Shown here: positions 8,784 to 32,111 of the stretch, piece by piece | How positions within the stretch are numbered: the first letter of the stretch is position 1 | How the letters are laid out: every line of letters starts with the position of its first letter | Source: Stenotrophomonas maltophilia | GTDB taxonomy: Bacteria; Pseudomonadota; Gammaproteobacteria; Xanthomonadales; Xanthomonadaceae | Length of the DNA stretch: 64,000 nt | Assembly: GCF_900186865.1 (NCBI RefSeq) | Contig: NZ_LT906480.1 | Coordinates: forward strand, 186,001 to 250,000 | Direction of reading: 5' to 3' | Notes under the pieces: model-generated | The model's input: only the letters and a program-made list of their open reading frames with translations | Told to the model about the DNA's origin: nothing | Databases searched by the model: none | Translations under genes and position numbers: made by a program

Positions 8784-8816
8784 CAAGCTCCCCACCCACG
8801 CAGGTAGAATGCGCAC

Positions 8817-11104: not shown

Positions 11105-11109
11105 GCCCC

Positions 11110-11688: not shown

Positions 11689-11713
11689 CCGCCGTGCTGC
11701 CCGCGCCTGATCC

Positions 11714-11812
11714 GGTAGTGCTGGCCGCGCCTGATCTGGTAGTGCCGGCCGCTGGCCGGCAAGCCCAGCAGCCAGACGATCCGCAGGCAGCCGGCCAGCG
11801 GCCGGCTCTACC
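11714..11812. repeat. Degenerate and intact SMAG REPs
   Basis: A truncated GTAGTGCTGG copy starts near 11715. An intact copy occupies 11739-11761 and a reversed copy about 11790-11812. The last two face each other and can form one long stem. They lie inside the apparent upstream extension of the next reading frame, which is why a downstream start was chosen for that gene. Confidence 0.85.
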
Positions 11813-11843
11813 GCATTCAGTGCCCAGCCTCGATAATCCCGCC

Positions 11844-12584: not shown

Positions 12585-12587
12585 ACG

Positions 12588-12659
12588 GTAGTGCCGGCCG
12601 CTGGCCGGCATCTGCCTGATCCCAACCGTACGAGGTTGCCGGCCAGCGGCCGGCACGAC
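12588..12659. repeat. Pair of facing SMAG REPs
   Basis: A forward copy lies at 12588-12610 and a reversed copy at 12637-12659, between the convergent truC and DUF2059 genes. The two can pair to form a large bidirectional hairpin. Only one base separates the second copy from the next stop codon. Confidence 0.9.
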
Positions 12660-12660
12660 C

Positions 12661-13188: not shown

Positions 13189-13321
13189 GCGAAGCTTCCT
13201 GCGGTACATGGGACGGCCAGCATACCCGCAGCCAAGGCGAAGGCGGCGTGTTCGGTACCTGATCGGCGGCATACGGCGCGCGATGCGCACTCCGACACGT
13301 GGCTGCCGCTACAATGCGCGG

Positions 13322-13753
13322 ATGGGCAGTGGACCGGTCACCATCAACGCGCAGCTTGAAATCCCCGACGGCGAGATCGTCGAGCGGTTCGTGCGTGCCA
13401 GCGGTGCCGGTGGCCAGAACGTCAACAAGGTCTCCACTGCGGTGGAACTGCGTTTCGACGTGGCCAACTCGCCCTCGTTGCCCGAACCGTTGCGCACGCG
13501 CCTGCTGGCGCGGCGTGACCGGCGCATGACCGGCGAAGGCGTGCTGGTCATCGACGCGCAACGTTTCCGCACCCAGGATCGCAATCGCGAGGATGCGCGC
13601 GAGCGGCTGGCGGCCTTCATCCAGGCCGGGCTGAGCGTGCCCAAACCGCGCAAGGCCACCAAGCCGACCCTCGGGTCGAAACTGCGTCGTCTGGACGCCA
13701 AACGCGGGCGCGCGCAGATCAAGCGCGGGCGCTCATCACGTGACTGGGAGTGA
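13322..13753 (+). CDS. arfB: ArfB, alternative ribosome-rescue factor
   Basis: This 143-residue peptidyl-tRNA hydrolase frees ribosomes stalled on mRNAs without a stop codon. The GGQ motif in ASGAGGQNVNKVST near residues 28-30 is the catalytic loop. The basic C-terminal tail (RAQIKRGRSSRDWE) is the segment that enters the empty mRNA channel in E. coli ArfB. The length matches the family (about 140). The ATG at 13322 is the first codon of the domain; the frame further upstream is antisense to the DUF2059 gene. Confidence 0.93.
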   Translation: MGSGPVTINAQLEIPDGEIVERFVRASGAGGQNVNKVSTAVELRFDVANSPSLPEPLRTRLLARRDRRMTGEGVLVIDAQRFRTQDRNREDARERLAAFIQAGLSVPKPRKATKPTLGSKLRRLDAKRGRAQIKRGRSSRDWE

Positions 13754-13757
13754 TTGC

Positions 13758-14360
13758 TTGAACAACCCGACTCCGCTGCTGCCGGCCGTGCCGCCGCAGA
13801 TGCCACAGGTCAAACCCAACGCCTTCCTGCGCTGGCTGGCGCGCTGCACCCTGCGCATGGGCGGCTGGAAGGTGACCGGCACCCTGCCTGACATCCCGCG
13901 CCTGGTGTTCATCATCGCGCCGCATTCGTCCAACTGGGACGGCCTGTGGGGCATGGCGGCCAAGATCGCGCTGGGCATGAAGGTGAAGGTGCTGGGCAAG
14001 GCCTCGCTGTTCTGGTGGCCGCTGGGGCCGCTGCTGCACAAGCTGGGCGTGATCCCGCTGGACCGCAGCTCGCCGCAGGGCACGGTGGGCCAGGCGGTGG
14101 ACCTGCTGCGCAACAACGAGAAGATGTGGTTCGCCATCACCCCCGAGGGCACCCGAAAGGCGGTGAAGGAGTGGAAGGCCGGCTTCCTGAAGATCGCCCG
14201 GATGGCCGACGTGCCGATCCTGGCCGCCTATTTCCATTACCCGGAAAAGACCATCGGCATCGGCCCGCTGTTCCAGCCGACCGGCGACGATGCTGCCGAC
14301 ATGGCCGCCATCCGCGAGTTCTACCGGCCGTGGATCGGCAAGACCCGCGGCACGGTCTGA
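13758..14360 (+). CDS. PlsC-like acyltransferase
   Basis: This protein of about 200 residues belongs to the lysophospholipid acyltransferase (PlsC) superfamily. The HX4D motif is HSSNWD near residue 55, and the acyl-acceptor motif is PEGTRK near residue 129. No membrane helix is obvious beyond a hydrophobic stretch near SLFWWPLGPLLHKLGVIPL. The start is uncertain. TTG 13758 has GGGAG seven bases upstream, GTG 13740 lies inside arfB and ATG 13800 is also in frame. It probably shares a transcript with arfB. The substrate is not known. Confidence 0.8.
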   Translation: MNNPTPLLPAVPPQMPQVKPNAFLRWLARCTLRMGGWKVTGTLPDIPRLVFIIAPHSSNWDGLWGMAAKIALGMKVKVLGKASLFWWPLGPLLHKLGVIPLDRSSPQGTVGQAVDLLRNNEKMWFAITPEGTRKAVKEWKAGFLKIARMADVPILAAYFHYPEKTIGIGPLFQPTGDDAADMAAIREFYRPWIGKTRGTV

Positions 14361-14471
14361 GCCGGCCGCAGGCCGTCGCATAGACGCCACGTCCGGCACA
14401 TGCCGGGCGAGCGCGACAGGAGTAGGGTGGAGGGCTGGTATTCCATACCGTCTGCCCAAGGAGCGTTTTAC

Positions 14472-16628: not shown

Positions 16629-16653
16629 GCGCGACCTGGAGTACGAAAGAAAT

Positions 16654-16682
16654 AACGGCGGGGGAAACCCCGCCGTTTTTCG
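16654..16682 (+). terminator. Rho-independent terminator of dcp
   Basis: ACGGCGGGG, a GAAA-type loop and CCCCGCCGT form a GC-rich stem followed directly by TTTTT, 25 bases after the dcp stop. Confidence 0.93.
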
Positions 16683-16724
16683 TTGAATCGATGCCATCGA
16701 CAGATTCCGCAGTTTGCCGCTCAT

Positions 16725-17009
16725 CCACGCATGGCGTGGATCCATGTATCGACCAAGGTCGACACCCACCAAAAGCAGGCCATGCTGTTCCGACAGTTCG
16801 CGGAGATCTGTCGAAGGCGGGGTGGGTCCGGTTGCGGGGGTGTCCGCGGCATGGATGCCGCGGCCAAGCTTACAGGGACGTACTTGCAGCGTCCCCCGCA
16901 ACCGGACCCACCCCGCCATCCCCCAGGAAACCGGCTTTGGCTGTTGCTGTTGCTGTTGAGGTTGCCGGCCAGCGGCCGGCACTACCGGGTGCCGGGCACA
17001 GCCCGGCCA
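16725..17009. repeat. Composite repeat module B between dcp and the AroQ-like gene
   Basis: In order there is an ATCCACGC/GCGTGGAT hairpin near 16725-16743 and a diverged GTATCGACC/GGTCGACAC hairpin near 16745-16767. The long palindrome has 25-base arms at 16816-16840 and 16893-16917, perfectly complementary. It encloses the hairpins CCGCGGCAT/ATGCCGCGG and GGGACG/CGTCCC. Then come three GCTGTT hexamers near 16940-16957, a reversed SMAG REP at 16963-16985 and a GCCGGGC/GCCCGG hairpin. No gene is seen in this 380-base gap. Confidence 0.85.
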
Positions 17010-17456
17010 TCACGTCCCCACGTGTACCCGGTTGGCTTGTTCGGCCAGCCCCAGGTGATCCAGCGCGATGTCCAGCGCCAGCACATAGCTCTGCGCACCG
17101 TACCCGGCGGCGATGCCCAGGCGCTGGCCGACACCGGCCGGCAGGCACGGCTCGGCCACCGCGCCGTCGTCATGTACTTCCACGTAGGCGTTGTGCAGGT
17201 AGGGCAGCAGGCGCTGAAGACGCAGGCTGTTTGCACACGCACCCGGGTCCAGCAGCGTCACCTCGCCGCGGCTGTGGTCGGCCACGCGCAGGGCGTCCAG
17301 CAGTTCCTGTTCCGAGCCGCAGGCGCGTATCGCCACGCTGGTGCCGGCGTCGATCGCCCGGTGCACCAACGACTTCAGTACCGGTGCCGGCAGCGGCATG
17401 GCGGTACGGATCAGCGCACCGGCGGCTTCCGGGCCACGGATGATGAAGATCGACAT
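17010..17456 (-). CDS. AroQ-like protein lacking catalytic residues
   Basis: This 148-residue protein aligns by pattern with type II 3-dehydroquinate dehydratase. The start SIFIIRGPE stands where AroQ has its INGPNLN motif, EQELLDALR where AroQ has EGELIDRI, and LLDPGACANS where AroQ has INPGAYTHTS. YVEVH matches the FIEVH strand, and GYGAQSYVLALDIAL matches the C-terminal helix. The LNLLG loop with the catalytic Tyr is gone, and the PGAYTH Tyr and His are replaced, so dehydratase activity is unlikely. It overlaps nothing and lies three bases downstream of a second, shorter relative. A role is not known. Confidence 0.6.
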   Translation of the reverse strand: MSIFIIRGPEAAGALIRTAMPLPAPVLKSLVHRAIDAGTSVAIRACGSEQELLDALRVADHSRGEVTLLDPGACANSLRLQRLLPYLHNAYVEVHDDGAVAEPCLPAGVGQRLGIAAGYGAQSYVLALDIALDHLGLAEQANRVHVGT

Positions 17457-17459
17457 GGC

Positions 17460-17861
17460 TCAGCCCTCCTGCGCCAGGCGGCGGCCGACGATGGCCAGCG
17501 ACAACGGATAACCGGCCTGCTGGCTGCGCTGGTCGATGACCACCGCCGCCGGGCCATGCTGCAGTCGCAGGCGCGCCTCCAGGCCGGGCTCGCTGGGTGC
17601 CTGCAACTCGATGTACTGCGCCGGCAGCCGTTCCAGCGCCGCCTGCAGCGCACCGCCCTCGGCCTGCCATTGCGCCTCGTCGGCCACGCCGACATCCAGC
17701 AGCACCCAGTCGGCCGAACGCGCCTGCGGCTGGCACAGGCACTGGCGCACTTCGGACAGGCTGGCGCAGTCGCTGCACAGCACGCGATGGCCGTTCAGCT
17801 GCGCCGGCAGCTGCGGGCGCGGCACGGACGAAGATGCGTGGCGGATCACCAGGAGGGTCAT
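17460..17861 (-). CDS. Second, more diverged AroQ-like protein
   Basis: This 133-residue protein is encoded three bases upstream of the AroQ-like gene at 17010-17456. It shares that gene's outline: an N-terminal strand LLVIRHASS, a central DWVLLDVG strand, YIELQ where its neighbour has YVEVH, and a last helix AGYPLSLAIVGRRLA. No dehydroquinase catalytic residue is recognisable. GGAGGGT sits just upstream of the ATG at 17861. The pair look like tandem duplicates that may form a heteromeric AroQ-fold complex. The relationship is inferred from residue pattern only. Confidence 0.5.
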   Translation of the reverse strand: MTLLVIRHASSSVPRPQLPAQLNGHRVLCSDCASLSEVRQCLCQPQARSADWVLLDVGVADEAQWQAEGGALQAALERLPAQYIELQAPSEPGLEARLRLQHGPAAVVIDQRSQQAGYPLSLAIVGRRLAQEG

Positions 17862-18036
17862 ACAACACCTTGCGGAATGCGCCCTGCGGCGCGGTGGGCA
17901 CACGATGCGCGTGCTGGCCGTAAAGGTGCGATGCCCGCGGCCGGTCCCGCGCGTAAAACCTGCGTAACCTGGCGCTACCGGGAACCTCTCCCCCCATGTG
18001 TGGTCTGATGCAGCTACCACCCACCCGGAGCCTGCC

Positions 18037-18663
18037 ATGGACGCCGTTGCCCGCCCTCCCTTTTCTGATCGCGCGCTGGCCTGGCTGAAAAAGGAGGCGC
18101 TGCCGTTGCTGGTGATGCTCGGCCTGCTCGCCGCCGCCCGCGATACCCTCGCCAACCACTACGTGGTGCCCAGCGGTTCGATGCAGCCGACCCTGCAGCC
18201 CGGCGACCGGGTGGTGGTGGACATGCGCGCCTACGGCCTGCGCCTGCCATTCACCAGCAGGGAACTGATGTCCACCGGCACGCCGCAGCGCGGCGAAGTG
18301 GCGGTATTCGATTCGCCAGCCGACGGCACCCGCCTGATCAAGCGCGTTGCCGCAGTGGCCGGTGACCATGTACAGCTGCACGAAGGGCACCTGACCATCA
18401 ACGGCCAGCCGCTGCAGACTGCGGACCTGCAGGATGTGGAAGCCTTCGGTGAACGCCGTGCCAGCCTCGATCTGGACATGGGGGGCGGCCCGGACATCGC
18501 CGACCTGGTGGTGCCGGACGGCAAGGTGCTGGTGCTGGGTGACCACCGTGGCAACAGCTTCGATGGCCGCTTCTTCGGCTTCGTAGATGCCGACAAGGTC
18601 TACGGCCGTGCGGTGGCGGTGTACTACCGCCGCGGCGACGGTTTCGAGTGGCAGCGCCTGTAA
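18037..18663 (+). CDS. lepB: Signal peptidase I (LepB family), short form
   Basis: This is a 208-residue S26 signal peptidase that cleaves signal peptides from exported proteins. One membrane helix (about residues 20-33, ALPLLVMLGLLAAA) is followed by a periplasmic catalytic domain. Ser48 in VPSGSMQPTL is the nucleophile and Lys102 in TRLIKRVAAVAGD the general base. Box E is VLGDHRGNSFDGRFFGFV. It has one fewer membrane helix than E. coli LepB and lies alone, away from lepA, so it may be a second signal peptidase. The ATG at 18037 has GGAG upstream. Confidence 0.92.
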   Translation: MDAVARPPFSDRALAWLKKEALPLLVMLGLLAAARDTLANHYVVPSGSMQPTLQPGDRVVVDMRAYGLRLPFTSRELMSTGTPQRGEVAVFDSPADGTRLIKRVAAVAGDHVQLHEGHLTINGQPLQTADLQDVEAFGERRASLDLDMGGGPDIADLVVPDGKVLVLGDHRGNSFDGRFFGFVDADKVYGRAVAVYYRRGDGFEWQRL

Positions 18664-18668
18664 GCTGA

Positions 18669-18705
18669 ATTGATACTTCTTGAGTATCAATCCTGACTTA
18701 TCAGG
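18669..18705. promoter_or_regulatory. Two inverted repeats upstream of the MFS gene
   Basis: ATTGATACT and AGTATCAAT (18669-18677, 18683-18691) form a perfect 9-bp inverted repeat around TCTTG, with the T-N11-A spacing of LysR-type operators. CCTGA-CTTA-TCAGG follows at 18692-18705. This AT-rich patch is the likely promoter/operator of the exporter. The LysR gene at 21203-22120 is the obvious candidate regulator. The first repeat could also end lepB transcription, though no T-run follows. Confidence 0.5.
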
Positions 18706-18787
18706 TTATGGATCGACTGGATGGACGGGCCTAGTCTGAGGCCCGTTCCCTCCCACGCCCGGCCGTCCCCACCGGCCCTTCGATTCC

Positions 18788-20044
18788 ATGACTGGCGAAA
18801 CTGCGGCGGCCGTTGAAGGCCGTCCCTCCACTCTCGATACCGGCACCGACACCCGCATCCAGCAGGGCACCCCGGCCTTCCGCCGCACCGCGCTGGCGCT
18901 GTTCCTGGCCGGCTTCTCCACCTTCGGCCTGCTGTACACCGTGCAGCCGCTGCTGCCCGAGTTCAGCCGTCACTTCGGCGTGTCCGCCGCCGGCAGCGCG
19001 ATGTCGCTGTCGTTGACCACTGGCACGCTGGCGGTGGCGATGCTGCTGGCCGGCCTGCTGTCCGACGCGGTCGGCCGTCGCCCGTTGATGATCGTTGCGC
19101 TGTTGGCGTCGGCCATGCTGTCGCTGTGCACCGCGCTGGTGGACGACTGGACCACGCTGCTGGTGCTGCGGACCCTGCTTGGCCTGGCGCTGAGCGGCGT
19201 GCCGGCGGTAGCGATGACCTACCTGGTCGAGGAAATGGACAGCCGCGCGCTGGGCCTGGCGATGGGCCTGTACATCGGCGGCAACGCCATCGGTGGCATG
19301 AGCGGGCGCCTGCTGGCCGGCATCATCGCCGACCATTGGGGCTGGCGCTGGGGCATCGGCGTGGTCTCGATCATCGCCGTGGCCAGCACCGTGCTGCTGT
19401 GGCTGCAGCTGCCGCCGTCGCGTCACTTCCATGCACGTCGCGGCGGCCTGCGCCAATTGCCGTCGCGCTGGCGCACGCTGTTCGCCGACCCGGGCCTGCC
19501 GTGGCTGTTCGCCACCTCGTTCGTACTGATGGGCGTGTTCGTCACCCTCTACAACTACCTGGGCTATCACCTGCTGGCGCCGCCCTACCATCTCAGCCAG
19601 ACCGTGGTCGGGCTGATCTTCAGCGTCTATCTGGTGGGTACCTTCAGTTCGGCGTGGATGGGCCAGCAGGCCACGCGCTACGGACGCGGCCGCATCCTGT
19701 CGATCTCGTTCGCGCTGATCGGCGCCGGCATCGCGCTGCTGGCGATGCCGTGGCTGAGCACGATGGCGCTGGGTATCGCACTGGTGACCTTCGGCTTCTT
19801 CGGTGGTCATTCCGTGGCCAGCAGCTGGGTTGGAAGCCGCGCCGGTGCGATGCGTGCGGAAGCCTCGGCGCTGTACCTGTTCGCCTACTACCTGGGGTCC
19901 AGCGTGCTGGGCGGTGTGGGTGGCCTGGCCTATGCAGCCTGGGACTGGCTTGGCGTGTGTGCGTTCGCCGCCGTGCTGACCCTGATCGGCGGTGGCATCG
20001 TCTGGGCGCTGCAGCAGCGCGCGCCGCAGCCGGTCACGGCGTGA
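18788..20044 (+). CDS. MFS transporter, YnfM-like
   Basis: This 418-residue major facilitator has twelve predicted membrane helices. The loop 2-3 signature is in GLLSDAVGRRPLMIVALLA. A charged cytoplasmic N-terminus of about 35 residues precedes helix 1 (ALALFLAGFSTFGLLYTVQPLLPEF), a start typical of the YnfM/arabinose-efflux-like exporters. E. coli ynfM is also next to a LysR gene, as here, although in this genome the LysR gene is convergent and now separated by an IS element. The substrate is not known. Confidence 0.85.
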   Translation: MTGETAAAVEGRPSTLDTGTDTRIQQGTPAFRRTALALFLAGFSTFGLLYTVQPLLPEFSRHFGVSAAGSAMSLSLTTGTLAVAMLLAGLLSDAVGRRPLMIVALLASAMLSLCTALVDDWTTLLVLRTLLGLALSGVPAVAMTYLVEEMDSRALGLAMGLYIGGNAIGGMSGRLLAGIIADHWGWRWGIGVVSIIAVASTVLLWLQLPPSRHFHARRGGLRQLPSRWRTLFADPGLPWLFATSFVLMGVFVTLYNYLGYHLLAPPYHLSQTVVGLIFSVYLVGTFSSAWMGQQATRYGRGRILSISFALIGAGIALLAMPWLSTMALGIALVTFGFFGGHSVASSWVGSRAGAMRAEASALYLFAYYLGSSVLGGVGGLAYAAWDWLGVCAFAAVLTLIGGGIVWALQQRAPQPVTA

Positions 20045-23408: not shown

Positions 23409-23445
23409 GGCGTCACAAGTATTAGCACAATTTATGTAAAGCATT

Positions 23446-23461
23446 GCAAAAACTGTTTTGC
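23446..23461. promoter_or_regulatory. Candidate LysR operator upstream of aceB
   Basis: GCAAAA-ACTG-TTTTGC is a perfect 16-base palindrome in an AT-rich island between the divergent LysR gene and aceB. It is about 57 bases before the aceB start and 37 bases from the LysR start. Position and symmetry fit a LysR-type binding site; regulation is inferred. Confidence 0.5.
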
Positions 23462-23518
23462 CAAATACTCCGGCCCAGCGGCACCGTGGAGTCGTTCCCC
23501 CACCGCTGGAGTCGCCCC

Positions 23519-25141
23519 ATGTCCGCCGTCGCTTCCGCTGTTCCCACCCCTGCCAGCAAGGCTACCCCCGGCATCGCCCTGGCGACCCGCGTGGCCGGCC
23601 AGGACACCGTGCTGCCGGCGCCGCTGCTGGCCCTGCTGGTGTCGCTGCACCGTGCGGTGGAACCGGGCCGGCAGGCACGGCTGCAGGCCCGCCGCGAGCG
23701 CCAGGCGTTCTTCGATCAGGGCGGCCTGCCGGACTTCCGCGAAGACACCACCGCGATCCGCAACGGCGACTGGCGCGTTGCCCCGCTGCCGGCCGCGCTG
23801 CAGGACCGCCGCGTCGAGATCACCGGCCCGACCGACCCGAAGATGGTCATCAACGCGCTGAACTCCGGCGCCAAGGTGTTCATGGCCGACTTCGAGGATT
23901 CGACCTCGCCGACCTGGCGCAACCTCCTGGCCGGCCAGCAGTCGCTGGCGGCGGCGGTGCGCGGTGACCTGCAATTCACCGCTGCAAATGGCAAGCACTA
24001 CAGCCTGCGCCCGTACGACGAGCAGGCGGTGCTGATCGTGCGCCCGCGCGGCTGGCACCTGGACGAAAAGCACGTGGCCATCGACGGCCAGCCGCTGGCC
24101 GGTGGCCTGTTCGACGCGGCGGTGTTCGCCTTCCACAACGCCCGCACCCTGCAGGCGAAGGACCGCGGCCCGTACTTCTACCTGCCCAAGCTGCAGAGCA
24201 TGGAAGAGGCGGCGCTGTGGGAGACCGCGCTGTCGCACATCGAAGGCATGCTCGGCCTGCCGCATGGCCAGATCAAGGTGACGGTGCTGATCGAAACGCT
24301 GCCGGCGGTGTTCGAGATGGACGAGATCCTGCACGCGCTGCGTGACCGCATCGTCGGCCTGAACTGCGGGCGCTGGGACTACATCTTCTCGTACCTGAAG
24401 ACCTTCCGCCGCCACGCCGATCGCGTGCTGCCCGAGCGCGGCCAGGTGACCATGACCCAGCCGTTCCTGAAGGCCTATTCGGAACTGCTGATCCAGACCT
24501 GCCACCGCCGCGGTGCGCATGCGATGGGCGGCATGGCCGCGCAGATTCCGATCAATAACGATGCCGCCGCCAACGAACAGGCGATGGCCCGCGTGCGCGC
24601 CGACAAGCTGCGCGAAGTCACCGCCGGCCATGACGGCACCTGGGTTGCACACCCGGCGCTGATTCCGGTGGCGATGGCGATCTTCGACGAACACATGCCC
24701 GGTGCGAACCAGCACAGCGTGCTGCGCCAGGACGTGCGCGTCGGCCGCGACGAACTGATCGCACGGCCGCCGGGCACCATCACCCGCGCCAGTTTCGAAG
24801 GCAACGTGGAAGTCTGCGTGCGCTACCTGGCCGCTTGGCTGGATGGCAACGGCTGCGTGCCGATCCACCACCTGATGGAGGATGCGGCCACCGCCGAGAT
24901 CAGTCGCAGCCAGCTGTGGCAGTGGCTGCACACGCCGGGCCAGCAGCTGGACGACGGCACCGCGATCGACCTCGCGCTGCTGGATTCCACCCTCTCGCAG
25001 CTGCCGGCACGGCTGGGCGATACCGCCGCGCTGCCCGGTGGCGCACGCATCGGCGAGGCCATCGCCCTGCTCGGCGAACTGAGCCGCAGCGACGAACTGA
25101 CCGATTTCCTGACCCTGCCGGCTTACGCGCGCATCGACTGA
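23519..25141 (+). CDS. aceB: Malate synthase A
   Basis: This 540-residue enzyme joins glyoxylate and acetyl-CoA to form malate in the glyoxylate shunt. Family blocks are [65 protein letters not shown] and [33 protein letters not shown]. The ATG at 23519 matches the usual form-A N-terminus; the frame runs further upstream into the operator region. aceA follows after 64 bases on the same strand, with AGGAGAAA-type ribosome binding sequence ahead of it. Confidence 0.96.
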
Positions 25142-25205
25142 CCGACTGCCCGCAAACCCGCCGTTTCCCTCCCCGCTGCACGCACGAACCGAACTGGAGA
25201 AAGAC

Positions 25206-26507
25206 ATGAGCAAGCTGCCCACTGCCGAACAGATCCAGCACGACTGGGATACCAACCCGCGTTGGGAAGGCATCCAGCGCAACTACAGCGCCGCCGACGT
25301 GGTGCGCCTGCGCGGCACCGTCCACATCGAGCATTCGCTGGCCCGCCTGGGTGCGGAGAAGCTGTGGGCATCGCTGCATGAGCGCGAGTTCGTCAACGCG
25401 CTGGGCGCACTGACCGGTAACCAGGCCATGCAGCAGGTCAAGGCCGGGCTGAAGGCGATCTACCTGTCCGGCTGGCAGGTGGCGGCCGACGCCAACCTGG
25501 CCGGCCAGATGTATCCGGACCAGTCGCTGTACCCGGCCGATTCGGTGCCGGCGGTGGTCAAGCGCATCAACAACACGCTGCTGCGTGCCGATCAGCTGCA
25601 CCACGCCGAAGGCAAGGATGACATCGACTTCCTGCAGCCGATCGTGGCCGACGCCGAAGCCGGTTTCGGCGGCGTACTCAACGCCTTCGAACTGATGAAG
25701 GCGATGATCGAGGCCGGCGCCGCCGGCGTGCATTTCGAAGACCAGCTGGCGTCGGTGAAGAAGTGCGGCCACATGGGCGGCAAGGTGCTGGTGCCGACCC
25801 GCGAGGCCATCGAGAAGCTCAACGCCGCACGCCTGGCCGCCGACGTGCTGGGCGTGCCGACCCTGCTGGTCGCGCGCACCGATGCCGAGGCCGCGGATCT
25901 GCTGACCAGTGACATCGACGCCAACGACCGCCCGTTCACCACCGGCGAGCGCACCGTCGAGGGCTTCTACAAGACCCGCAATGGCCTGGACCAGGCGATC
26001 AGCCGTGGCCTGGCCTACGCGCCCTACGCCGACCTGGTGTGGTGCGAGACCGGCAAGCCAGACCTGGAATTCGCACGCAGGTTCGCCGAGGCGATCCATG
26101 CGAAGTTCCCGGGCAAGCTGCTGGCCTACAACTGCTCGCCCAGCTTCAACTGGAAGAAGAACCTGGACGACGCCACCATCGCCAAGTTCCAGCGTGAGCT
26201 GGGCAGCTATGGCTACAAGTTCCAATTCATCACCCTGGCCGGCTTCCACGCGCTGAACTACGGCATGTTCAATCTGGCCCACGGCTACGCACGCCGCCAG
26301 ATGAGCGCGTTCGTGGAACTGCAGGAAGCCGAGTTCGAAGCCGCCGAGCGGGGATTCACCGCGGTCAAGCACCAGCGCGAGGTTGGCACCGGCTACTTCG
26401 ATGCCGTGACCCAGGCGATCCAGCAGGGCCAGTCCTCGACCACCGCGTTGACCGGCTCGACCGAAGAGGAGCAGTTCCACGGCGGGCGCAGCGAACGCGC
26501 CGCGTGA
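25206..26507 (+). CDS. aceA: Isocitrate lyase
   Basis: This 433-residue enzyme splits isocitrate into glyoxylate and succinate. The catalytic loop KKCGHMGGK has its active Cys at residue 187. Other marks are DADTG-type substrate strands (here [10 protein letters not shown]), [10 protein letters not shown] and [21 protein letters not shown] precedes the ATG. It forms an operon with aceB. Confidence 0.97.
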
Positions 26508-26924
26508 TCCGATCGTGCCGGCCGCTGGCCGGCACCCACGTGCGCCTTCGTGCACTACGGAGAAGCCGGCCAGCGGCCAGCTCTACCGTGGGCGCGAATC
26601 CGATCAGGGTGGCCAGGGAAGGGCCAGGCAACGCCGGCCGGTCGGGGGACCTGCCGGCGTTGTTGTATCGATGGAAACGCGATGAACGCATGCAGCGTCA
26701 ATCCAGCGCACCCCACAGTCCGGCAACTTGGCCGAAACCCTGTGAAGGTGGCCATCAGATTGATCCGGAACGACTTTTCCCTGGACCGTGGCGGGCAGAA
26801 CGGCCACCGTGCGCCTTCACATCGGGAAAGCGGACCACACGGCTCAAAATGAGATAGGGCGCACATTTTAAAGCGGTGCTATGCTCCGCGGCTCACCAGG
26901 GGACGCTGGCGGCGGGTGCAGGGA
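26508..26924. repeat. REP remnants and a terminator hairpin after aceA; no gene
   Basis: An incomplete forward SMAG REP (no GTAG) lies about 26515-26536 and a partial reversed copy near 26567-26588. CAACGCCGGC and GCCGGCGTTG (about 26629-26662) form a stem after aceA that ends in TTGTTG. Near 26741 and 26815, GTGAAGG...GGCCA and GGCCACC...CTTCAC are complementary over a long distance. An AT-rich stretch ACATTTTAAAG near 26860 is the only promoter-like sequence ahead of the GGDEF gene. I see no coding region here. Confidence 0.6.
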
Positions 26925-27965
26925 ATGACCGGCAGGGGTGCGGCCGAGAACAGTGATGTGACGTCAGGTATCGCCCGGGTGGCGATGGCCGAGATCGTGC
27001 ATGCGCTGCTGTCCGATGCCGAGGTCGCATTGTTCGCCAGATTTGCCCGTCCACGCAAGCTTCATGCCGGGCAGTGGCTGTTCCAGCGTGGCCACCGTGG
27101 CGAGCGCATGTACGTGATCCTGGAAGGCCAGATCGAACTGGATTTCGGCGAGGACCTGGTGATCAAGACCCTCGGGCAGCAGGAGTTCTTCGGTGAGCTG
27201 GGCCTGCTGGTGGGTGATCACCCGCGCAGCGCCAGTGCGCGCGCCCTGGTGGACTGCGAGGTGCTTGAGCTGGGGCCCGCCGACTTCCATCGTCTGGTGG
27301 AATCCGATCCGGGCCTGGTCGCCTACTTCCTGCGCCGCACGATCATGCGCGTGCTGACCAACGAACAGGCGCTGATCAGCCAGCTGCGCCGGCGCAACCA
27401 TGATCTGGAAACCGCGCTGGACAACCTGTACATCACTACCCACCAGCTGACCCACACCCGTGAACTGGTGCGTACCGATGAACTGACCGGGCTGCACAAC
27501 CGCCGTGGCCTCACCCTGTACCTGCAGGAATGCCGCGCCGATGGCAGTGGGCTGCCGCAGGCGCTGCTGCTCATCGACTGCGACCGCTTCAAGCAGATCA
27601 ATGACCGCCATGGCCACCAGGCCGGCGATCGCGTGCTGCAGAGCATGGGCAACATCCTGCGCTCGATGGCCGGTGAGCAGGACCTGGCCTGCCGGCTCGG
27701 CGGTGACGAGTTCTGCCTGATCCTGCGTCGTGGCAACCACGAGATCGTGCAGCACGCGGCAGAGTTCATCCTCAGCGCGGTACACGGCCTGCTCGAGCGC
27801 AGCCACGGCACGCCGCACGTCAGCCTGGTCAGCATCGGCGCCAGCCTGCTGGACCCGGATGCGGGCTGGAGCGAGTGGTACGCCAGCGCGGATCGTGCGC
27901 TGTACCAGGCCAAGCGTGATGGTGGCAACTGCCTGCGTTGGGCAGACGCAGTGGACTCACCCTAG
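26925..27965 (+). CDS. Diguanylate cyclase with cyclic-nucleotide-binding domain
   Basis: This is a protein of about 346 residues. The cNMP-binding beta barrel spans about residues 30-145 (LHAGQWLFQRGHRGERMYVILEGQIELD... and FFGELGLLVGDHPRSASARA). A helical linker (150-185) and a GGDEF domain (185-340) follow. The active loop is an intact GGDEF in ACRLGGDEFCLIL. The usual inhibitory RxxD site just upstream is GEQD, so product inhibition is probably absent. It should make c-di-GMP in response to a ligand, perhaps cAMP. Starts at GTG 26916 or ATG 26985 are also possible. The next gene starts 17 bases after its stop, so the two are probably cotranscribed. Confidence 0.88.
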   Translation: MTGRGAAENSDVTSGIARVAMAEIVHALLSDAEVALFARFARPRKLHAGQWLFQRGHRGERMYVILEGQIELDFGEDLVIKTLGQQEFFGELGLLVGDHPRSASARALVDCEVLELGPADFHRLVESDPGLVAYFLRRTIMRVLTNEQALISQLRRRNHDLETALDNLYITTHQLTHTRELVRTDELTGLHNRRGLTLYLQECRADGSGLPQALLLIDCDRFKQINDRHGHQAGDRVLQSMGNILRSMAGEQDLACRLGGDEFCLILRRGNHEIVQHAAEFILSAVHGLLERSHGTPHVSLVSIGASLLDPDAGWSEWYASADRALYQAKRDGGNCLRWADAVDSP

Positions 27966-27982: not shown

Positions 27983-30520
27983 ATGAATGGCGACAACGGA
28001 ACGTCGGCGCCGCACAACCAGCAACTGCGCGCCCTGCTGTTCACCGACCTGTGTGACTCGCTGCTGCTGGTCGAACGCATCGGCGATGTCGCTGCCGCCG
28101 AACTGTTCCAGGAACACGATCGCCTGGTGCTGGCACTGCAGCAGCGCTGGAACGGCCAGCTGATCGATCGCTCCGACGGGCTGTTCATGCTGTTCGAGCG
28201 CCCGATCGACGCGCTTGGCTTCGCATTGGATTACCAGCGTGGGCTGCAGCCGCTGGGGCAGAGACACGAGATCCATCTGCAGGCGCGGGCCGGTCTGCAT
28301 GTGGGCGATGTGCTGACCTGGGAGAACAGCGCCGAGGCAGTGCGGGCTGGCGCCAAGGCGATTGAAGTCGAAGGCCTGGCCAAGCCGACGGCGGCGCGCC
28401 TGATGCAGTTGGCACGTCCGGGCCAGATCCTGCTTTCGGCGGTGGCCGAATCCATCGTGCGTCGCTCCAGTGGGTCGCTGGGCGCGATGGCTGAAGGCCT
28501 GCAATGGCGGTCGTTCGGGCGATGGCGCTTCAAGGGCGTGAGCCAGCCAGCCGAAGTCTACGGCGTGCAGGCGGCGGGCATGCCCACCCCGGGGCGGCTG
28601 CGGCACACGGCCAAGGCCCGGCGTGATCTTCCGTTGTGGCGCCGTCCGCTGGCGATGGCGGCGCAGGCCGCCGTACTGCTGGCCGCAGTGCTTGGCGTCT
28701 GGTTGCTGACCCGGCCACAGCCGGCCATCGCGTTCGCCGAACGCGACTGGGTGGTGCTCGGCGGGCTGCATAACCTCACCGGCAATCGACTGCTCGATGA
28801 CGCCCTGGACCAGGCGTTCCGGATCAGTCTCGAGCAGTCCCGCTACGTCAACGTCGTCAGTGACGACCGCGTCAGCCGCACCCTTGAGATGATGCGGAAA
28901 CCGCCGGATCGCGGTGTCCGCGAACGTGGCGATGCCGCCGCTGTGGCGGTGCGCACGGGCGCCCGCCTGGTGTTCGTGCCATCGGCGACCGATGTCGGCG
29001 GCCGAACCCGCTTCAGCGTGGAGGTGGTCGAGCCGTCGACGCTGCGCACCCTGGCCGTGGTATCCGCCGATGCGAAGGCGGGTGCGGTACTGGCGGCGGT
29101 GGACGAAGTTTCGCGCCAGCTGCGCGATCGCCTGGGCGAAGAGCCCGCATTGATCCAGCGCGACAGCCAATCCCTGCCGGAGGTGACCACGGGCAGCATG
29201 GATGCGTTGCGTGCGTTTGCCTTGGGCCAGAAGCGCTACAGCCGAGGAGATTTCAACGGCGCGATGGCGTTCTTCGGACAGGCGATCGAGGTCGATCCTG
29301 AGTTCGCCCTGGCATGGCTGGGCCAAGCCCGCTGTCGCTTCGCCATGATGAATTACCGCGATGCCCGGCGTCTGCTGGCAGAGGCCGACCGTCGATCAGG
29401 GCACCTTACACCACGCGAGCGCCTGTACGTGCAGAACTGGGCGCTGCAGATCAGTGATCCGGATCGTGCCACCGATGGCTGGGCGCGCATGGCGGAGCTG
29501 TATCCGGATTACATGCCTGCAAGCTACAACGCCGGTCTGAATCTTTTCCACGAGAACCGCCTTGCCGAGGCCCTGGCGCTTTCCAGGCGTGTTGCACAAA
29601 GCAGGGTCGAGCTGCCTGAGATCGCGCAGGACCAGTACGGCCGCGCCTTGCTGGCCAGCGAGCGCTATGCAGAGGCTGACATCGCGTTCAGCCGTGCCGC
29701 CGGCAATGGTTGGGAAGGTGCATTGATGCGCCAGGCGACGGTGGCGGCAGCGCGTTCCGAGTTCGAGAAGGCCAATGCGCTGCTTGCGCGGATCGATCCA
29801 GGCAACTTCCATGCTGGCAATTTCGCTACCACGATTGCGCTTGACCAAGGCGATGTCGAGGGCGCCATCAAGCTCGCCGAACAGGGAAGGATGCTTGCCG
29901 GACAGCGCCAGGGCATGGATCGGTACAACTTCGACATGCCCCTGGCCGTCGCCTACATGATGGCCGGCAGAAGGTCGAAGGCGCTGATGGTGGCGCGCGT
30001 GGCCGCGACCGCGCCGTTCGCAGAGCTGAGCGGCGAACCCGCGGTGGAGGTAGTGGATCGCCTGGTTGCAGCACACGCGGCAGCCTTGCTGGCACTGAGA
30101 CTGGGCGATGCCGCACCGGCCAAGGCGGTCCAGGCCCGGATGAACGCGCTTCAGGATCTCCCTGACAGCAGCGTGTTGCGCCAGTACGTCACCCTGTTGG
30201 CCGGGCGGATGATGCAGCATGAGGGCCGGCCCCAGGCCGGGCTGGACCTGCTCGTACCGCTGCTGAAGAAGCAGCCACGCCTGCAGGTGCGGCTGGCAGT
30301 GCGTGACCTGGCGCTGGAGGCGGGCCTGAAGGATGTTGCCCAGGAGCAGACGCGTTGGCTGCGTGATCGCCCCGGATTTGCATATGCAGAAGCGCAATGC
30401 AGCTTCTGCCTGCAGGCGCTTAACGTAGTGGATGTGCGGAGGCTCATGGCGGCGCCGGCAATCGAGGCTGCCGACACCATGGCCTCGATGCCTCAGCGCA
30501 GCGTGCGCGGCGAGCCGTAA
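27983..30520 (+). CDS. Putative peptide-modification-system cyclase (class III cyclase plus TPR)
   Basis: This is an 845-residue protein. Residues 15-185 form a class III nucleotide cyclase domain, with both metal-binding Asp residues present (FTDL, Asp22; RSDGLF, Asp65). The Asn normally four residues before Arg in the NxAAR motif appears replaced (AKPTAARL), so activity may be altered. A membrane helix lies near 223-243 (AAQAAVLLAAVLGVWLL). The outer part resembles a FlgO/TolB-like region and then TPR repeats from about 405 to the end. From memory it matches a Xanthomonad family called putative peptide modification system cyclase, found with a small modified-peptide gene and a SagB-like dehydrogenase; both neighbours are present. 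Its exact role is unknown. Confidence 0.82.
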   Translation: MNGDNGTSAPHNQQLRALLFTDLCDSLLLVERIGDVAAAELFQEHDRLVLALQQRWNGQLIDRSDGLFMLFERPIDALGFALDYQRGLQPLGQRHEIHLQARAGLHVGDVLTWENSAEAVRAGAKAIEVEGLAKPTAARLMQLARPGQILLSAVAESIVRRSSGSLGAMAEGLQWRSFGRWRFKGVSQPAEVYGVQAAGMPTPGRLRHTAKARRDLPLWRRPLAMAAQAAVLLAAVLGVWLLTRPQPAIAFAERDWVVLGGLHNLTGNRLLDDALDQAFRISLEQSRYVNVVSDDRVSRTLEMMRKPPDRGVRERGDAAAVAVRTGARLVFVPSATDVGGRTRFSVEVVEPSTLRTLAVVSADAKAGAVLAAVDEVSRQLRDRLGEEPALIQRDSQSLPEVTTGSMDALRAFALGQKRYSRGDFNGAMAFFGQAIEVDPEFALAWLGQARCRFAMMNYRDARRLLAEADRRSGHLTPRERLYVQNWALQISDPDRATDGWARMAELYPDYMPASYNAGLNLFHENRLAEALALSRRVAQSRVELPEIAQDQYGRALLASERYAEADIAFSRAAGNGWEGALMRQATVAAARSEFEKANALLARIDPGNFHAGNFATTIALDQGDVEGAIKLAEQGRMLAGQRQGMDRYNFDMPLAVAYMMAGRRSKALMVARVAATAPFAELSGEPAVEVVDRLVAAHAAALLALRLGDAAPAKAVQARMNALQDLPDSSVLRQYVTLLAGRMMQHEGRPQAGLDLLVPLLKKQPRLQVRLAVRDLALEAGLKDVAQEQTRWLRDRPGFAYAEAQCSFCLQALNVVDVRRLMAAPAIEAADTMASMPQRSVRGEP

Positions 30521-30798
30521 CCGTCCTCAAGCATCGGCACGGAGTAGCCGGTACCACTGGTCAGCATGGCGATGATCTGCTCTTCGGCCTGTGCGATGAC
30601 GTCTTTCTCCGCCAGGCAGATGTTCTTGCAGCAATCCTGGACGAACTGCTGAAGGTCAGCCGGGTTGGATGGAACGTGCCCAGCCAGCAGTATCGCGGCG
30701 GCCGTGTCGGTGGCGAAGAGCTGGCGGAACGTGTCATCGGTGGCGAGGCGCTGAACCAGCGTCCTTGCGACCGGCAGCGAGAGCGTCAACGTGGGCAT
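30493..30798 (-). CDS. Putative RiPP-like precursor peptide (NHLP-type leader)
   Basis: This 101-residue peptide has a first half resembling nitrile-hydratase-like leader peptides: LVQRLATDDTFRQLFATD near residues 14-31 with an AAAILL helix. A middle segment contains CCKNIC (Cys56, Cys57, Cys61). The last 22 residues are rich in Gly, Ser, Thr and Tyr (SGTGYSVP...GYGSP) and are the likely core. Start 30798 has AGGA just upstream; 30810 would add four residues. The gene is convergent with the cyclase gene, overlapping its last 28 bases, and divergent from the SagB-type dehydrogenase gene. It fits the putative modified peptide family of Xanthomonads; modification has not been shown. Confidence 0.75.
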   Translation of the reverse strand: MPTLTLSLPVARTLVQRLATDDTFRQLFATDTAAAILLAGHVPSNPADLQQFVQDCCKNICLAEKDVIAQAEEQIIAMLTSGTGYSVPMLEDGYGSPRTLR

Positions 30799-30941
30799 TG
30801 TGTCCTGCATCCATGGAGTGTCGAGGGGCAGTGGTGATGTCGGCTTGGCAAAGCGGTTCTTGAGAGGGTAGAGCGGGAGACGTAAAGGAATCGGGTCGCG
30901 GTTCGATAACGTGGATTCACGATGAAGGAAGGGCTGATCCG
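30799..30941. promoter_or_regulatory. Divergent promoter region between precursor and dehydrogenase genes
   Basis: These 143 bases separate two divergent genes and must hold both start sites. AAGGAAGGG at about 30924-30932 is the ribosome site for the dehydrogenase. TTGAGA near 30867 could be a -35 element, but no clear -10 is seen. A short GTG-GATT-CAC inverted repeat lies near 30911-30920. No other small peptide gene is visible here. Confidence 0.5.
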
Positions 30942-32111
30942 ATGGATGTCAGGCGCTGCGCGATCGTAGTGGTACAGCCCACCGAGCAGATCCGGTTTGA
31001 GTTTGAGGGCCTGCTGCGCGGTGGTGATGGGCTGGTGCGCACGCTTGCCTGGGAGGCACTCGCCCCCCACCTGGACGGACCGGTGGTGCTGGACGCTGCG
31101 GCACAGGCACTGCTGGGAAGCCTGAGCCCAAGTGCATGGACCACGCTTGAGGCAGGGGAGGCCTGTTCACCCGCGATGGACCTGCTGATCGCCAGTGGCC
31201 TGGTGTTGACCCGCGGGCAGGATGACGATGTTGCCGCTCGTGACGAGCGGTTGCGTGCAACGCATTGGCATCCCCTGGCTGCGGTCATGCATGCCTTCTC
31301 ACGCTGGGAGGATGTTGACGCCGTTCGCAACATGCGTGAATCACAGATCGAAACGGCCTCGCAGATGCGCAGGACGTTGGGACCGCCGCCACCGCACGCT
31401 GCCGCTGCCGACGCTGGGTTGGTACCACTGCCGCCTCAGCAGTCCAACGATTTCGACGCACTGCTGGCGCGGCGCGTCACCTGCCGGAACTTCGATGTCA
31501 CCCGATCACTGCCGCTGCCCCTGCTGAGCCAGATGCTGCAACGGGCATTCGGCAGCAGCAGCTGCCAGCGCGAAGGCGATGATCTGGTGTTCCTGAAGAA
31601 GAACGTCCCTTCGGGCGGTGGACTGCATCCTGTCGAAGCCTACGTGCTGGTGCGCAATGTCGATGGACTTGCCGCGGGCATGTACCTCTATCGAGCGCAG
31701 GGCCACGGACTGATGCCGGTTGATTGCCCCGTGGCCATCGATCGCGACTTCGTGATGTCCATGGTCGGGCAGCAGCACTGGTTCGCGGATGCGCACGTGC
31801 TGGTGGTCCTGGCCCCGCGTTTCAACAGGACGTACTGGAAGTATCGCCAGCATGGGAAAAGCTATCGGGTTGTCGCGATGGAAGCGGGACATCTATCCCA
31901 GACGCTGTACCTGGCGGCCACGGATGCCGGCCTGGGAGCATTCATTACTGCAGCGATCAACGAAAAGCCCATCGAACGTGCCCTGGGCCTGGACACGATC
32001 AACGAGGGGGTACTCGCGGTCTGCGGTTTCGGATGGCGTGCATCACGGATGACGACCAGCGAACTGGACCCGGCAGGCGTGATCTGGAACCTTGAAGACC
32101 GCGCGGGCTGA
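30942..32111 (+). CDS. Putative peptide maturation dehydrogenase (SagB-type)
   Basis: This 389-residue protein has a C-terminal nitroreductase-like FMN domain from about residue 170. RRVTCRNFD, then VPSGGGLHPVEAYVLV and GLGAFITAAINEKPIERALGL, are typical of SagB dehydrogenases, which oxidise azoline rings to azoles in thiazole/oxazole-modified peptides. The first 150 residues have no recognised domain and may bind the peptide, as the N-terminal part of other SagB-related enzymes does. No YcaO cyclodehydratase gene is visible, so azoline oxidation is not implied. From memory it fits the family named putative peptide maturation dehydrogenase, partner of the neighbouring cyclase and precursor. 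Confidence 0.8.
   Translation: MDVRRCAIVVVQPTEQIRFEFEGLLRGGDGLVRTLAWEALAPHLDGPVVLDAAAQALLGSLSPSAWTTLEAGEACSPAMDLLIASGLVLTRGQDDDVAARDERLRATHWHPLAAVMHAFSRWEDVDAVRNMRESQIETASQMRRTLGPPPPHAAAADAGLVPLPPQQSNDFDALLARRVTCRNFDVTRSLPLPLLSQMLQRAFGSSSCQREGDDLVFLKKNVPSGGGLHPVEAYVLVRNVDGLAAGMYLYRAQGHGLMPVDCPVAIDRDFVMSMVGQQHWFADAHVLVVLAPRFNRTYWKYRQHGKSYRVVAMEAGHLSQTLYLAATDAGLGAFITAAINEKPIERALGLDTINEGVLAVCGFGWRASRMTTSELDPAGVIWNLEDRAG

What the first reader, a model, noticed from the sequence alone, without database searches (positions are those of the whole stretch)
27983..32111. Putative peptide-modification locus: cyclase/TPR protein, NHLP-like precursor, SagB-type dehydrogenase
A 101-residue peptide with an NHLP-like leader pattern and a Gly/Ser/Thr/Tyr-rich tail lies between an 845-residue class III cyclase-TPR protein and a SagB-related flavin dehydrogenase. 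From memory the three fit Xanthomonad families described only as putative modified peptide, peptide modification cyclase and peptide maturation dehydrogenase. No YcaO, radical SAM, lanthionine synthetase or transporter gene is visible, so the chemistry, if any, is unknown and may need an enzyme outside the window.
Basis: partly seen in the sequence, partly recalled or inferred. Interest (0 to 1): 0.88.

Follow-up and report, generated by a model that had tools for sequence, protein, structure and literature searches.

The report
Swappable peptide-receptor cassette on cGMP cyclase
A small peptide, the enzyme thought to modify it and the outer half of a membrane-bound cGMP-making receptor are exchanged together between bacteria like a lock with its key, while the signalling half is largely kept, which points to a previously unrecognised peptide-sensing system that uses cGMP.

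Summary
The proteins pass TIGR04510, TIGR04509 (peptide on the minus strand, 30493-30798) and TIGR04511 far above cut-off. Each family is over cut-off in the same 57 of 250 genomes of the order.

It and the "cyclase" match the XC_0249/XC_0250 cGMP pathway of Xanthomonas campestris (PMC3770947), down to the residues mutated there. So the "peptide modification cyclase" is most likely a transmembrane guanylate cyclase whose TPR half has no assigned input.

The new finding is mosaicism. The TPR half, peptide and dehydrogenase swap as one cassette. In 34 same-genus pairs with cyclase-domain identity of at least 85%, TPR, peptide and dehydrogenase identities correlate at 0.92-0.94 and are unrelated to the cyclase domain. 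Gene trees agree.

Best reading: a polymorphic peptide-receptor system, analogous to agr or comQXP, with the peptide (modified by the dehydrogenase) as cognate ligand and cGMP/c-di-GMP as output. The cassette is shown by sequence. Ligand role, chemistry and export are inferred.

The parts
26916..27965 (+). cNMP-binding + GGDEF protein (349 aa): predicted cGMP-responsive diguanylate cyclase; output gene outside the cassette
   Evidence: Pfam cNMP_binding 73.7 bits and GGDEF 130.1 bits; PDB 5h5o 153 bits; F77, E94, H102, N149, E150 equal XC_0249 F73, E90, H98, N145, E146 at a constant +4 offset; directly upstream of the cyclase in 51 of 57 loci with a full cyclase
27983..30520 (+). TIGR04510 protein (845 aa): class III guanylate-cyclase domain (about 14-196), TM helix (222-243), alpha/beta domain (255-384), TPR superhelix (406-835)
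28706..30520 (+). Putative sensor half of the cyclase (from residue about 242, predicted periplasmic): variable, part of the swapped cassette
   Evidence: Positive flank KARRDLPLWRRP before the TM helix; tree shares more splits with peptide and dehydrogenase than with the cyclase domain of the same protein; helices 609-680 most variable, 15-22% mean pairwise identity
30493..30798 (-). NHLP-related precursor peptide, TIGR04509 (101 aa): conserved leader about 6-78, allele-specific tail about 79-101
   Evidence: 101 bits; in 16 swap pairs leader 6-45 is 45% identical and tail 4%, in 14 same-allele pairs tail 74% (medians)
30799..30941 (.). Divergent intergenic region between peptide and dehydrogenase genes; 56.6% G+C against 67.1% for the window
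30942..32111 (+). SagB-type FMN dehydrogenase TIGR04511 (389 aa): N-terminal strand-helix domain (about 1-95) plus nitroreductase fold with invariant W299-K300-Y301-R302
28865..31451 (.). Core of the hypervariable cassette: no blastn match (E<=1e-5, 60 bp or more) in 8 of 8 same-genus loci with another allele (L033, L034, L035, L055-L059); the other 4 of 12 loci compared (L089-L092) match wholly or in part. Shoulders of about 65-75% at about 28200-28800 and 31500-32100
   Evidence: 12 loci; 300-bp bins for 5 loci

Best explanation
The locus is a polymorphic peptide-receptor module feeding a cGMP to c-di-GMP relay. SHOWN BY SEQUENCE: an output part (cNMP-GGDEF gene plus the cytoplasmic guanylate-cyclase domain) is joined to an exchangeable cassette (TPR half of the cyclase, precursor peptide, SagB-type dehydrogenase), and the cassette is inherited, lost, moved and replaced as a unit. 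INFERRED: (1) the dehydrogenase docks on the conserved leader through its N-terminal domain and oxidises the allele-specific tail; (2) the mature tail reaches the periplasm and binds the cognate TPR superhelix; (3) binding alters dimerisation of the cyclase domains and so cGMP output; (4) cGMP binds the cNMP domain and raises c-di-GMP (shown in vitro for the X. campestris homologue XC_0249). The closest functional analogies are agr and comQXP, where ligand precursor, modifying enzyme and receptor sensor half vary together while the output half stays constant (recalled), and animal peptide-receptor guanylate cyclases such as GC-A.
For: Co-occurrence over cut-off in the identical 57 of 250 genomes. 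G106, G111 and G231 keep aceBA plus the cNMP-GGDEF gene but show no cyclase, peptide or dehydrogenase there. In G214 the trio lies about 80 kb from the aceBA-cNMP-GGDEF site, and in G014, G024, G073 (other contigs) and G235 (about 180 kb) it is also not beside the cNMP-GGDEF gene. Same-genus pairs with cyclase domain >=85% (34 with all values): TPR~peptide 0.94, TPR~dehydrogenase 0.92, peptide~dehydrogenase 0.92; cyclase domain against these three -0.12, -0.10, -0.05. Trees of 44 loci, shared splits of 41: TPR-DH 29, TPR-PEP 23, PEP-DH 20, DGC-CHD 18, aceA-DGC 17, but CHD-TPR 10, DGC-TPR 9, aceA-TPR 7. L064 against L083: 97.0% DNA identity into the cyclase gene, then no match, then 99.2% beyond the dehydrogenase. 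Among 121 proteins (the window's and the 120 listed of 1627 public relatives), 191 pairs have cyclase domains >=90% identical; 83 of them have TPR <50%, 56 have TPR >=80%. Orphan TM+TPR halves without a cyclase domain lie after the dehydrogenase in L049 and L050 and match other alleles' receptors at 47-50%. The cNMP domain is found in 56 of 57 trio genomes; the exception, G091, has a cyclase domain lacking most invariant residues. Partial rank correlations over 169 same-genus pairs: TPR-PEP|DH 0.63, PEP-DH|TPR 0.45, TPR-DH|PEP 0.10. Within the window's own allele dS is raised in the cassette while dN/dS is 0.07-0.12 for the whole genes (L089, L090). Published: XC_0250 makes cGMP, its TPR domain is uncharacterised, and the cyclase domain alone restores biofilm formation.
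Against: No transporter or secretion signal for the peptide was found at the locus; the only C39 peptidase found in the genome is a 267-aa ORF elsewhere, so how a cytoplasmic peptide meets a periplasmic TPR domain is unexplained. The transposon screen in X. campestris (about 5000 colonies) names two XC_0250 insertions lowering cGMP and mentions none in peptide or dehydrogenase genes. TPR, peptide and dehydrogenase genes are adjacent, so part of their congruence could be linkage, and peptide as hub is also what gene order predicts. The two blocks are not fully separate: over all 169 same-genus pairs CHD-DH is 0.41 and CHD-TPR 0.23, and partial Mantel values CHD-TPR 0.25 and DGC-TPR 0.30 exceed almost all of 499 permutations. 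For the window itself the border is gradual: against eight other-allele loci (L033-L035, L055-L059) the cNMP-GGDEF protein is 91-96% identical but the cyclase domain only 67-81%. Inside the cassette the parts can differ (L033-L034: TPR 73, peptide 77, dehydrogenase 95). Pairs are not phylogenetically independent. Canonical transition-state residues of class III cyclases are substituted in this family, and no activity has been measured for the Stenotrophomonas protein.
Confidence: 0.6

Rival explanations
1. A peptide natural product (bacteriocin-like RiPP) whose TPR receptor-cyclase is the producer's self-recognition or immunity sensor; cassettes diversify as in toxin-immunity arms races.
For: Allele-specific tails, orphan receptor halves and stacked cassettes (L071: 9 peptide matches, 10, and 5 dehydrogenase-like genes) resemble polymorphic toxin loci.
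Against: No transporter, protease or separate immunity gene stood out among conserved neighbours, though only ORFs of 90 aa or more were clustered; within the window's allele the tail is well conserved; the partner that co-varies is a receptor half fused to a nucleotide cyclase.
Confidence: 0.15
2. The TPR half is a scaffold or docking part of the peptide-maturation machinery, and the cyclase domain only reports or times maturation; the peptide is the product, not the input (the reading implied by the NCBIfam names).
For: The three co-vary and the family names imply it. G091 keeps TPR, dehydrogenase and five peptides although its cyclase domain is degenerate and no cNMP-GGDEF match was found at E<=1e-15.
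Against: A TM helix with N-in charge bias puts the TPR half on the other side of the membrane from the cyclase domain, and the dehydrogenase is presumably cytoplasmic (inference); TPR-DH correlation nearly vanishes once the peptide is controlled for (0.10 over 169 pairs; 0.37 in the 34 close pairs).
Confidence: 0.15
3. Only the cGMP pair matters; peptide and dehydrogenase are hitchhikers in a recombination hotspot.
For: The three are physically adjacent, and some residual correlation between cyclase domain and cassette remains.
Against: 57/57/57 identical presence; removal and relocation as a unit; the cassette border falls inside the cyclase gene, so half a gene goes with the peptide and half stays.
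Confidence: 0.06
4. A nucleotide-signalling anti-phage system whose sensor diversifies under phage pressure.
For: The cNMP domain has weak matches to Pycsar-type entries (best PycTIR, 35.8 bits).
Against: Cyclase, peptide and dehydrogenase have no PADLOC match at E<=0.01; the partner output is a diguanylate cyclase, not a toxic effector.
Confidence: 0.04

Closest known systems
XC_0250 / XC_0249 cGMP pathway of Xanthomonas campestris (PMC3770947)
   Same: Adjacent cyclase-TPR and cNMP-GGDEF genes; D35, D65, L67, A144, L151, A155 match XC_0250 D41, D71, L73, A150, L157, A161; F77, E94, H102, N149, E150 match XC_0249 F73, E90, H98, N145, E146. The paper itself says adjacent homologues occur in S. 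maltophilia.
   Different: The parts of the paper I read (three of four; not the figure legends or supplement) do not mention neighbouring peptide or dehydrogenase genes, assign an input to the TPR half, or note its polymorphism. The XC_0250 sequence itself was not in hand, so orthology rests on gene order and residue spacing.
NCBIfam TIGR04509 / TIGR04510 / TIGR04511 putative peptide modification system
   Same: All three models matched far above cut-off.
   Different: Names are putative; this report gives the cyclase a signalling role and shows that its TPR half, more than its cyclase domain, travels with the peptide and dehydrogenase.
agr (AgrB/AgrD/AgrC) and comQXP polymorphic quorum-sensing loci (logic recalled; comQXP pherotypes seen as passages in PMC4408185)
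   Same: Modifying enzyme, peptide precursor and receptor sensor half vary together; output half and effector are kept.
   Different: Different parts by family search: SagB-type dehydrogenase, NHLP-like leader, TPR sensor, guanylate cyclase and cNMP-GGDEF instead of (recalled) prenyl transferase or protease, histidine kinase and response regulator. Secretion and group-specific activation are not shown.
SagB / McbC / ThcOx azoline oxidases
   Different: No YcaO match in the genome and no tail position at which Cys, Ser or Thr exceeds 25 of 78 peptides, so azole formation is not expected.
Animal natriuretic-peptide receptor guanylate cyclases (GC-A)
   Different: An analogy only: unrelated sensor (TPR), different kingdom, ligand not shown.

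Membership tests
TIGR04509 NHLP-related RiPP peptide | Model score over curated cut-off | tested here: met
   101.1 bits against 34
TIGR04510 putative peptide modification system cyclase | Model score over curated cut-off | tested here: met
   1170.4 bits against 400
TIGR04511 putative peptide maturation dehydrogenase | Model score over curated cut-off | tested here: met
   576.8 bits against 240; all 50 members of A1 match at E<=0.01
SagB-type FMN dehydrogenase | SagB domain, nitroreductase fold, conserved WKY segment | tested here: met
   TIGR03605 121.2 against 78.4; W299-K300-Y301 invariant in 50; folds
Azole-forming RiPP (TOMM) cluster | YcaO cyclodehydratase in the genome | tested here: not met
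   0 matches in the 5.0-Mb single-contig genome; 5 of 14 control genomes ring
RiPP in general | Post-translationally modified, leader-cleaved peptide | not testable with these tools
   needs mass spectrometry
XC_0250/XC_0249-type cGMP pathway | Adjacent cyclase-TPR and cNMP-GGDEF genes | tested here: met
   17-base gap between the genes; 51 of 57 loci with a full cyclase
XC_0250/XC_0249-type cGMP pathway | Residues required for cGMP synthesis and cGMP binding | tested here: met
   11 of 11 residues identical in the window at constant offsets (residues); across the family some vary: N at position 149 in 34 of 54 rows and L at position 67 in 34 of 61 rows
XC_0250/XC_0249-type cGMP pathway | Guanylate cyclase activity and cGMP-stimulated diguanylate cyclase activity | not testable with these tools
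   shown only for X. campestris (PMC3770947)
Class III nucleotidyl cyclase domain | Fold and metal-site Asp residues | tested here: met
   [not shown]
Polymorphic peptide-receptor system (agr/comQXP-like logic) | Ligand precursor, modifying enzyme and sensor half co-vary; output half kept | tested here: met
   the border is gradual in the window's own comparisons
Polymorphic peptide-receptor system (agr/comQXP-like logic) | Peptide exported and sensed, with allele-specific activation | not testable with these tools
   no transporter seen among conserved neighbours
agr or comQXP proper | Histidine kinase receptor and AgrB/ComQ-type enzyme (recalled) | tested here: not met
   family searches show a guanylate cyclase-type receptor and a SagB-type dehydrogenase
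Known anti-phage nucleotide-signalling systems (PADLOC) | Cyclase model match | tested here: not met
   no match of the cyclase at E<=0.01

The most novel reading that the evidence does not exclude
A bacterial receptor guanylate cyclase with its own genetically encoded, enzymatically oxidised peptide ligand: strains carry incompatible ligand-receptor types ('pherotypes') exchanged as cassettes, and peptide recognition at the TPR superhelix sets cGMP and then c-di-GMP. This would be the first known peptide signal with cGMP output in bacteria and the first SagB-modified signalling peptide (to my knowledge).
Probability: 0.4. Interest if true: 0.93.

Novelty: new variant of a known kind. Interest (0 to 1): 0.82.

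Why it matters
[quoted passage not shown] likewise in a 2019 review, PMC8042644, passage). Here the genes next door and the exchange pattern supply a concrete, testable candidate input. It would also give three 'putative' NCBIfam families one joint function, add cGMP to the outputs of polymorphic peptide signalling, and explain what a SagB-type oxidase does in a genome without YcaO.

Tried and rejected
Azole or lanthionine chemistry: set aside for lack of YcaO, SPASM radical SAM and LanC matches in the genome and because no tail position has Cys, Ser or Thr in more than 25 of 78 peptides. A dedicated transporter or additional conserved enzyme: ORF clustering of 58 loci showed as strongest conserved neighbours aceB-aceA (46 of 58 loci) and a LysR-like gene (43; LysR recognised by eye) upstream, and lineage-specific genes downstream; small genes could be missed because only ORFs of 90 aa or more were clustered, and only the 25 largest groups were printed.

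First idea, that the cyclase domain is a dead pseudo-enzyme because canonical residues are replaced: dropped after PMC3770947 showed activity of the homologue with such substitutions. First idea, that the dehydrogenase is itself mosaic with a constant catalytic domain: not borne out; its C-terminal half is only moderately more conserved.

Rapid adaptive evolution as the sole cause of divergence: not supported, since dN/dS in the window's allele is 0.07-0.12 for whole genes with raised dS (L089 and L090); but the last 44 aligned codons of the cyclase reach 0.39-0.51, and a 66-68-codon piece of aceB in the flank also has high dS (0.31-0.41).

One genome-contig scan gave only four Stenotrophomonas loci and one Fischerella SagB-like protein, so no named Xanthomonas locus was obtained; 5h5o is about 94% identical to three loci of genus 'g5', and I did not settle which handle is X. 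campestris. Paper searches (listings only; 20 of 47, 25 of 1670 and 2 of 2 shown; 0 papers) gave nothing on the link. Foldseek against 'pdb' could not be started; only the pdb_via second look was used, which barely tests the dehydrogenase's N-terminal domain and the middle domain of the cyclase.


Full report
WHAT IS THERE. The finding's three genes are real and correctly placed. The cyclase-TPR protein is 27983-30520 (+), the dehydrogenase 30942-32111 (+), and the peptide 30493-30798 on the minus strand, convergent with the cyclase and divergent from the dehydrogenase. All three pass their NCBIfam models far above cut-off. Nearest named relatives are Stenotrophomonas: the dehydrogenase is 93% identical to that of S. 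maltophilia PC315. Seventeen bases upstream of the cyclase ends a cNMP-binding/GGDEF gene (26916-27965), and upstream of that lie isocitrate lyase and malate synthase.

THE THREE GENES ARE ONE UNIT. In 250 genomes of the order each family is over its cut-off in 57 genomes, the same 57; at E<=0.001 the counts are 58, 233 and 70 for TIGR04509, TIGR04510 and TIGR04511. In 398 genomes spread over the phylum the peptide family is over cut-off in 8, all within the order, with one further match below it. A search with the cNMP domain (E<=1e-15) finds 60 of 250 genomes: 56 of the 57 trio genomes and 4 others. Three of those four (G106, G111, G231) keep aceBA plus the cNMP-GGDEF gene but show no cyclase, peptide or dehydrogenase there; the fourth, G030, shows a cNMP-GGDEF relative and only an 18-bit cyclase-profile match. 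The single trio genome without a cNMP match, G091, has a cyclase domain that lost most invariant residues, and five tandem peptides. In G214, G014, G024, G073 and G235 the trio is not next to the cNMP-GGDEF gene. I fetched 58 stretches covering the other 56 trio genomes (two genomes are split over two contigs). With the window, 57 loci have a full cyclase: the peptide is convergent and adjacent in 55 (not L039, a contig end, and L051), the dehydrogenase is on the opposite strand to the cyclase in 6, on the same strand in 48 and not seen downstream in 3, and the cNMP-GGDEF gene is directly upstream in 51.

THE CASSETTE IS EXCHANGED. The clearest pair is L064 and L083, same genus: 97.0% DNA identity over 5.3 kb through the cNMP-GGDEF gene into the cyclase gene, then no blastn match, then 99.2% from beyond the dehydrogenase. 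Their cyclase domains are 100% identical, yet their TPR halves are 26%, peptides 17% and dehydrogenases 30% identical, and L083's cassette instead resembles that of two loci of another genus (TPR segments 19-67%, dehydrogenase 50-52%). Same-genus pairs were taken from 43 of the 58 stretches plus the window (the other 15 were not given a genus label). Over 34 pairs with cyclase domains at least 85% identical (a 35th, L060-L063, dropped for lack of a cNMP-GGDEF gene), rank correlations are TPR-peptide 0.94, TPR-dehydrogenase 0.92, peptide-dehydrogenase 0.92, and -0.12, -0.10 and -0.05 between the cyclase domain and TPR, peptide and dehydrogenase. Over all 169 pairs with all values they are 0.76, 0.56 and 0.67 inside the cassette, 0.68 for DGC-CHD, and 0.23, 0.23 and 0.41 between cyclase domain and TPR, peptide and dehydrogenase. 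In the 27 pairs at 90% or more, median identities are DGC 94, cyclase domain 95, TPR 40, peptide 38, dehydrogenase 55. Trees for the 44 loci with all six sequences (three multi-copy or degenerate loci, L051, L066 and L071, left out) share, of 41 possible splits, 29 (TPR-DH), 23 (TPR-PEP), 20 (PEP-DH), 18 (DGC-CHD) and 17 (aceA-DGC), but only 10 between the two halves of the same cyclase protein. Partial Mantel values controlling for aceA are 0.61, 0.51 and 0.57 inside the cassette and 0.65 for DGC-CHD; across blocks they are 0.09-0.30, of which CHD-TPR (0.25, 0 of 499 permutations as high) and DGC-TPR (0.30, 1 of 499) are small but not nil. In 31 swap pairs the upstream match ends at a median cyclase codon of 298 (range 160-530) and the downstream match begins a median 72 bp after the dehydrogenase (range -838 to 1161).

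THE WINDOW TAKES PART, WITH A SOFTER BORDER. Of 12 loci compared by blastn, eight same-genus loci with another allele (L033, L034, L035, L055-L059) have no match across 28865-31451, while flank matches are 88.2-90.5% in six and 79.7-91.8% in L055 and L057; identity recovers at about 32.1 kb. Against these eight the cNMP-GGDEF protein is 91-96% and the cyclase domain 67-81% identical, falling broadly from the N-terminus in the five of them profiled, so the border lies inside or is blurred over the cyclase domain here. Relatives L089 and L090 share the window's allele (90-92% DNA). There synonymous divergence is raised in the TPR segments (0.32-0.93) and dehydrogenase (0.58-0.60) over the cNMP-GGDEF gene (0.12-0.30), aceA (0.24) and a downstream gene (0.11-0.17), but it is already 0.37-0.51 in cyclase residues 121-290 and 0.31-0.41 in a 66-68-codon piece of aceB. 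dN/dS is 0.07-0.12 for whole genes, 0.39-0.51 at the cyclase C-terminus. That fits old alleles moved by recombination better than fast protein change. Among 121 proteins, 191 pairs have cyclase domains at least 90% identical; 83 of these have TPR halves below 50% and 56 at or above 80%. P0004 (named S. maltophilia) has a 100% identical cyclase domain but a TPR half only 62% identical.

FOOTPRINTS OF EXCHANGE. L049 and L050 carry, after the dehydrogenase, an orphan TM+TPR half without a cyclase domain; its four best matches are receptors of other alleles (47-50%), and its own main receptor is not among the eight best hits printed. L066 has two complete cassettes in tandem, and L071 a pile of 5 dehydrogenase-like and about ten peptide-like genes.

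LIGAND-LIKE PEPTIDE. In 16 pairs with different TPR types (TPR below 45%, cyclase domain 90% or more) the median leader block 6-45 is still 45% identical while the tail is 4%; in 122 further pairs with TPR below 45% these are 42% and 27%; in 14 pairs of the same type (TPR 70% or more) 82% and 74%. In the window's own allele, 14 of 22 tail positions (79-100 of the 100-aa query) are identical in at least 90% of 16 sequences, against 33 of 78 leader positions (counted). Over 169 same-genus pairs the peptide is the statistical hub: TPR-PEP|DH 0.63, PEP-DH|TPR 0.45, TPR-DH|PEP 0.10; in the 34 close pairs 0.62, 0.44 and 0.37. Gene order alone could also make the middle gene the hub. The most variable receptor helices are 609-680.

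PRIOR PRINT. A full-text search for the family names and model numbers returned one paper, on graspetides, that uses one phrase in passing (passage). Searches for XC_0249, XC_0250 and neighbouring tags (3 and 7 papers; one read in three of four parts, three more seen as passages, the others as listings) and for combinations of cGMP, RiPP, NHLP and Xanthomonas (20 of 47 listed, 0 papers) gave no paper that I recognised as linking the cGMP pathway to a peptide. The library holds only open-licence papers.

VERDICT. An ordinary-looking trio of 'putative' families is the variable part of a cGMP signalling system. The cassette structure is well supported; that the peptide is the ligand is the best explanation (0.6), with export and chemistry open.

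Noticed in passing
L071 (G235), 2552-19432: A pile of cassette pieces: one full receptor, a receptor fragment, 5 dehydrogenase-like (one a fragment) and about 10 peptide-like genes on both strands within 17 kb.
   Followed up: partly
L051 (G091), 6761-12958: Five tandem near-identical peptide genes, a dehydrogenase and a receptor whose cyclase domain has lost most invariant residues, in a genome without a cNMP-GGDEF match at E<=1e-15.
   Followed up: partly
window 23444-26507; 46 of 58 loci: The locus sits next to the glyoxylate-shunt genes (isocitrate lyase, malate synthase) and, in 43 loci, a LysR-like gene; whether the neighbourhood is functional or only an ancestral address is unknown.
   Followed up: no
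L083, L084, L085, L086, L087, L088: A second cassette subtype with the dehydrogenase and peptide on one strand and very short peptides (for example ending GWVVFCR), in three families of the order; dehydrogenases of four of them compared are 25-32% identical to the main type.
   Followed up: partly
P0127: A public peptide of the window's allele (91 aa) lacks ten residues of the leader but is otherwise 100% identical over the aligned part.
   Followed up: no
[not shown]
   Followed up: yes
PMC3770947 residue assignment against window 27983-28605: The first metal-site Asp named in the paper (D41) corresponds by spacing to D35 here, whereas the invariant FTD-type Asp is D22; the published motif register may be shifted.
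   Followed up: partly
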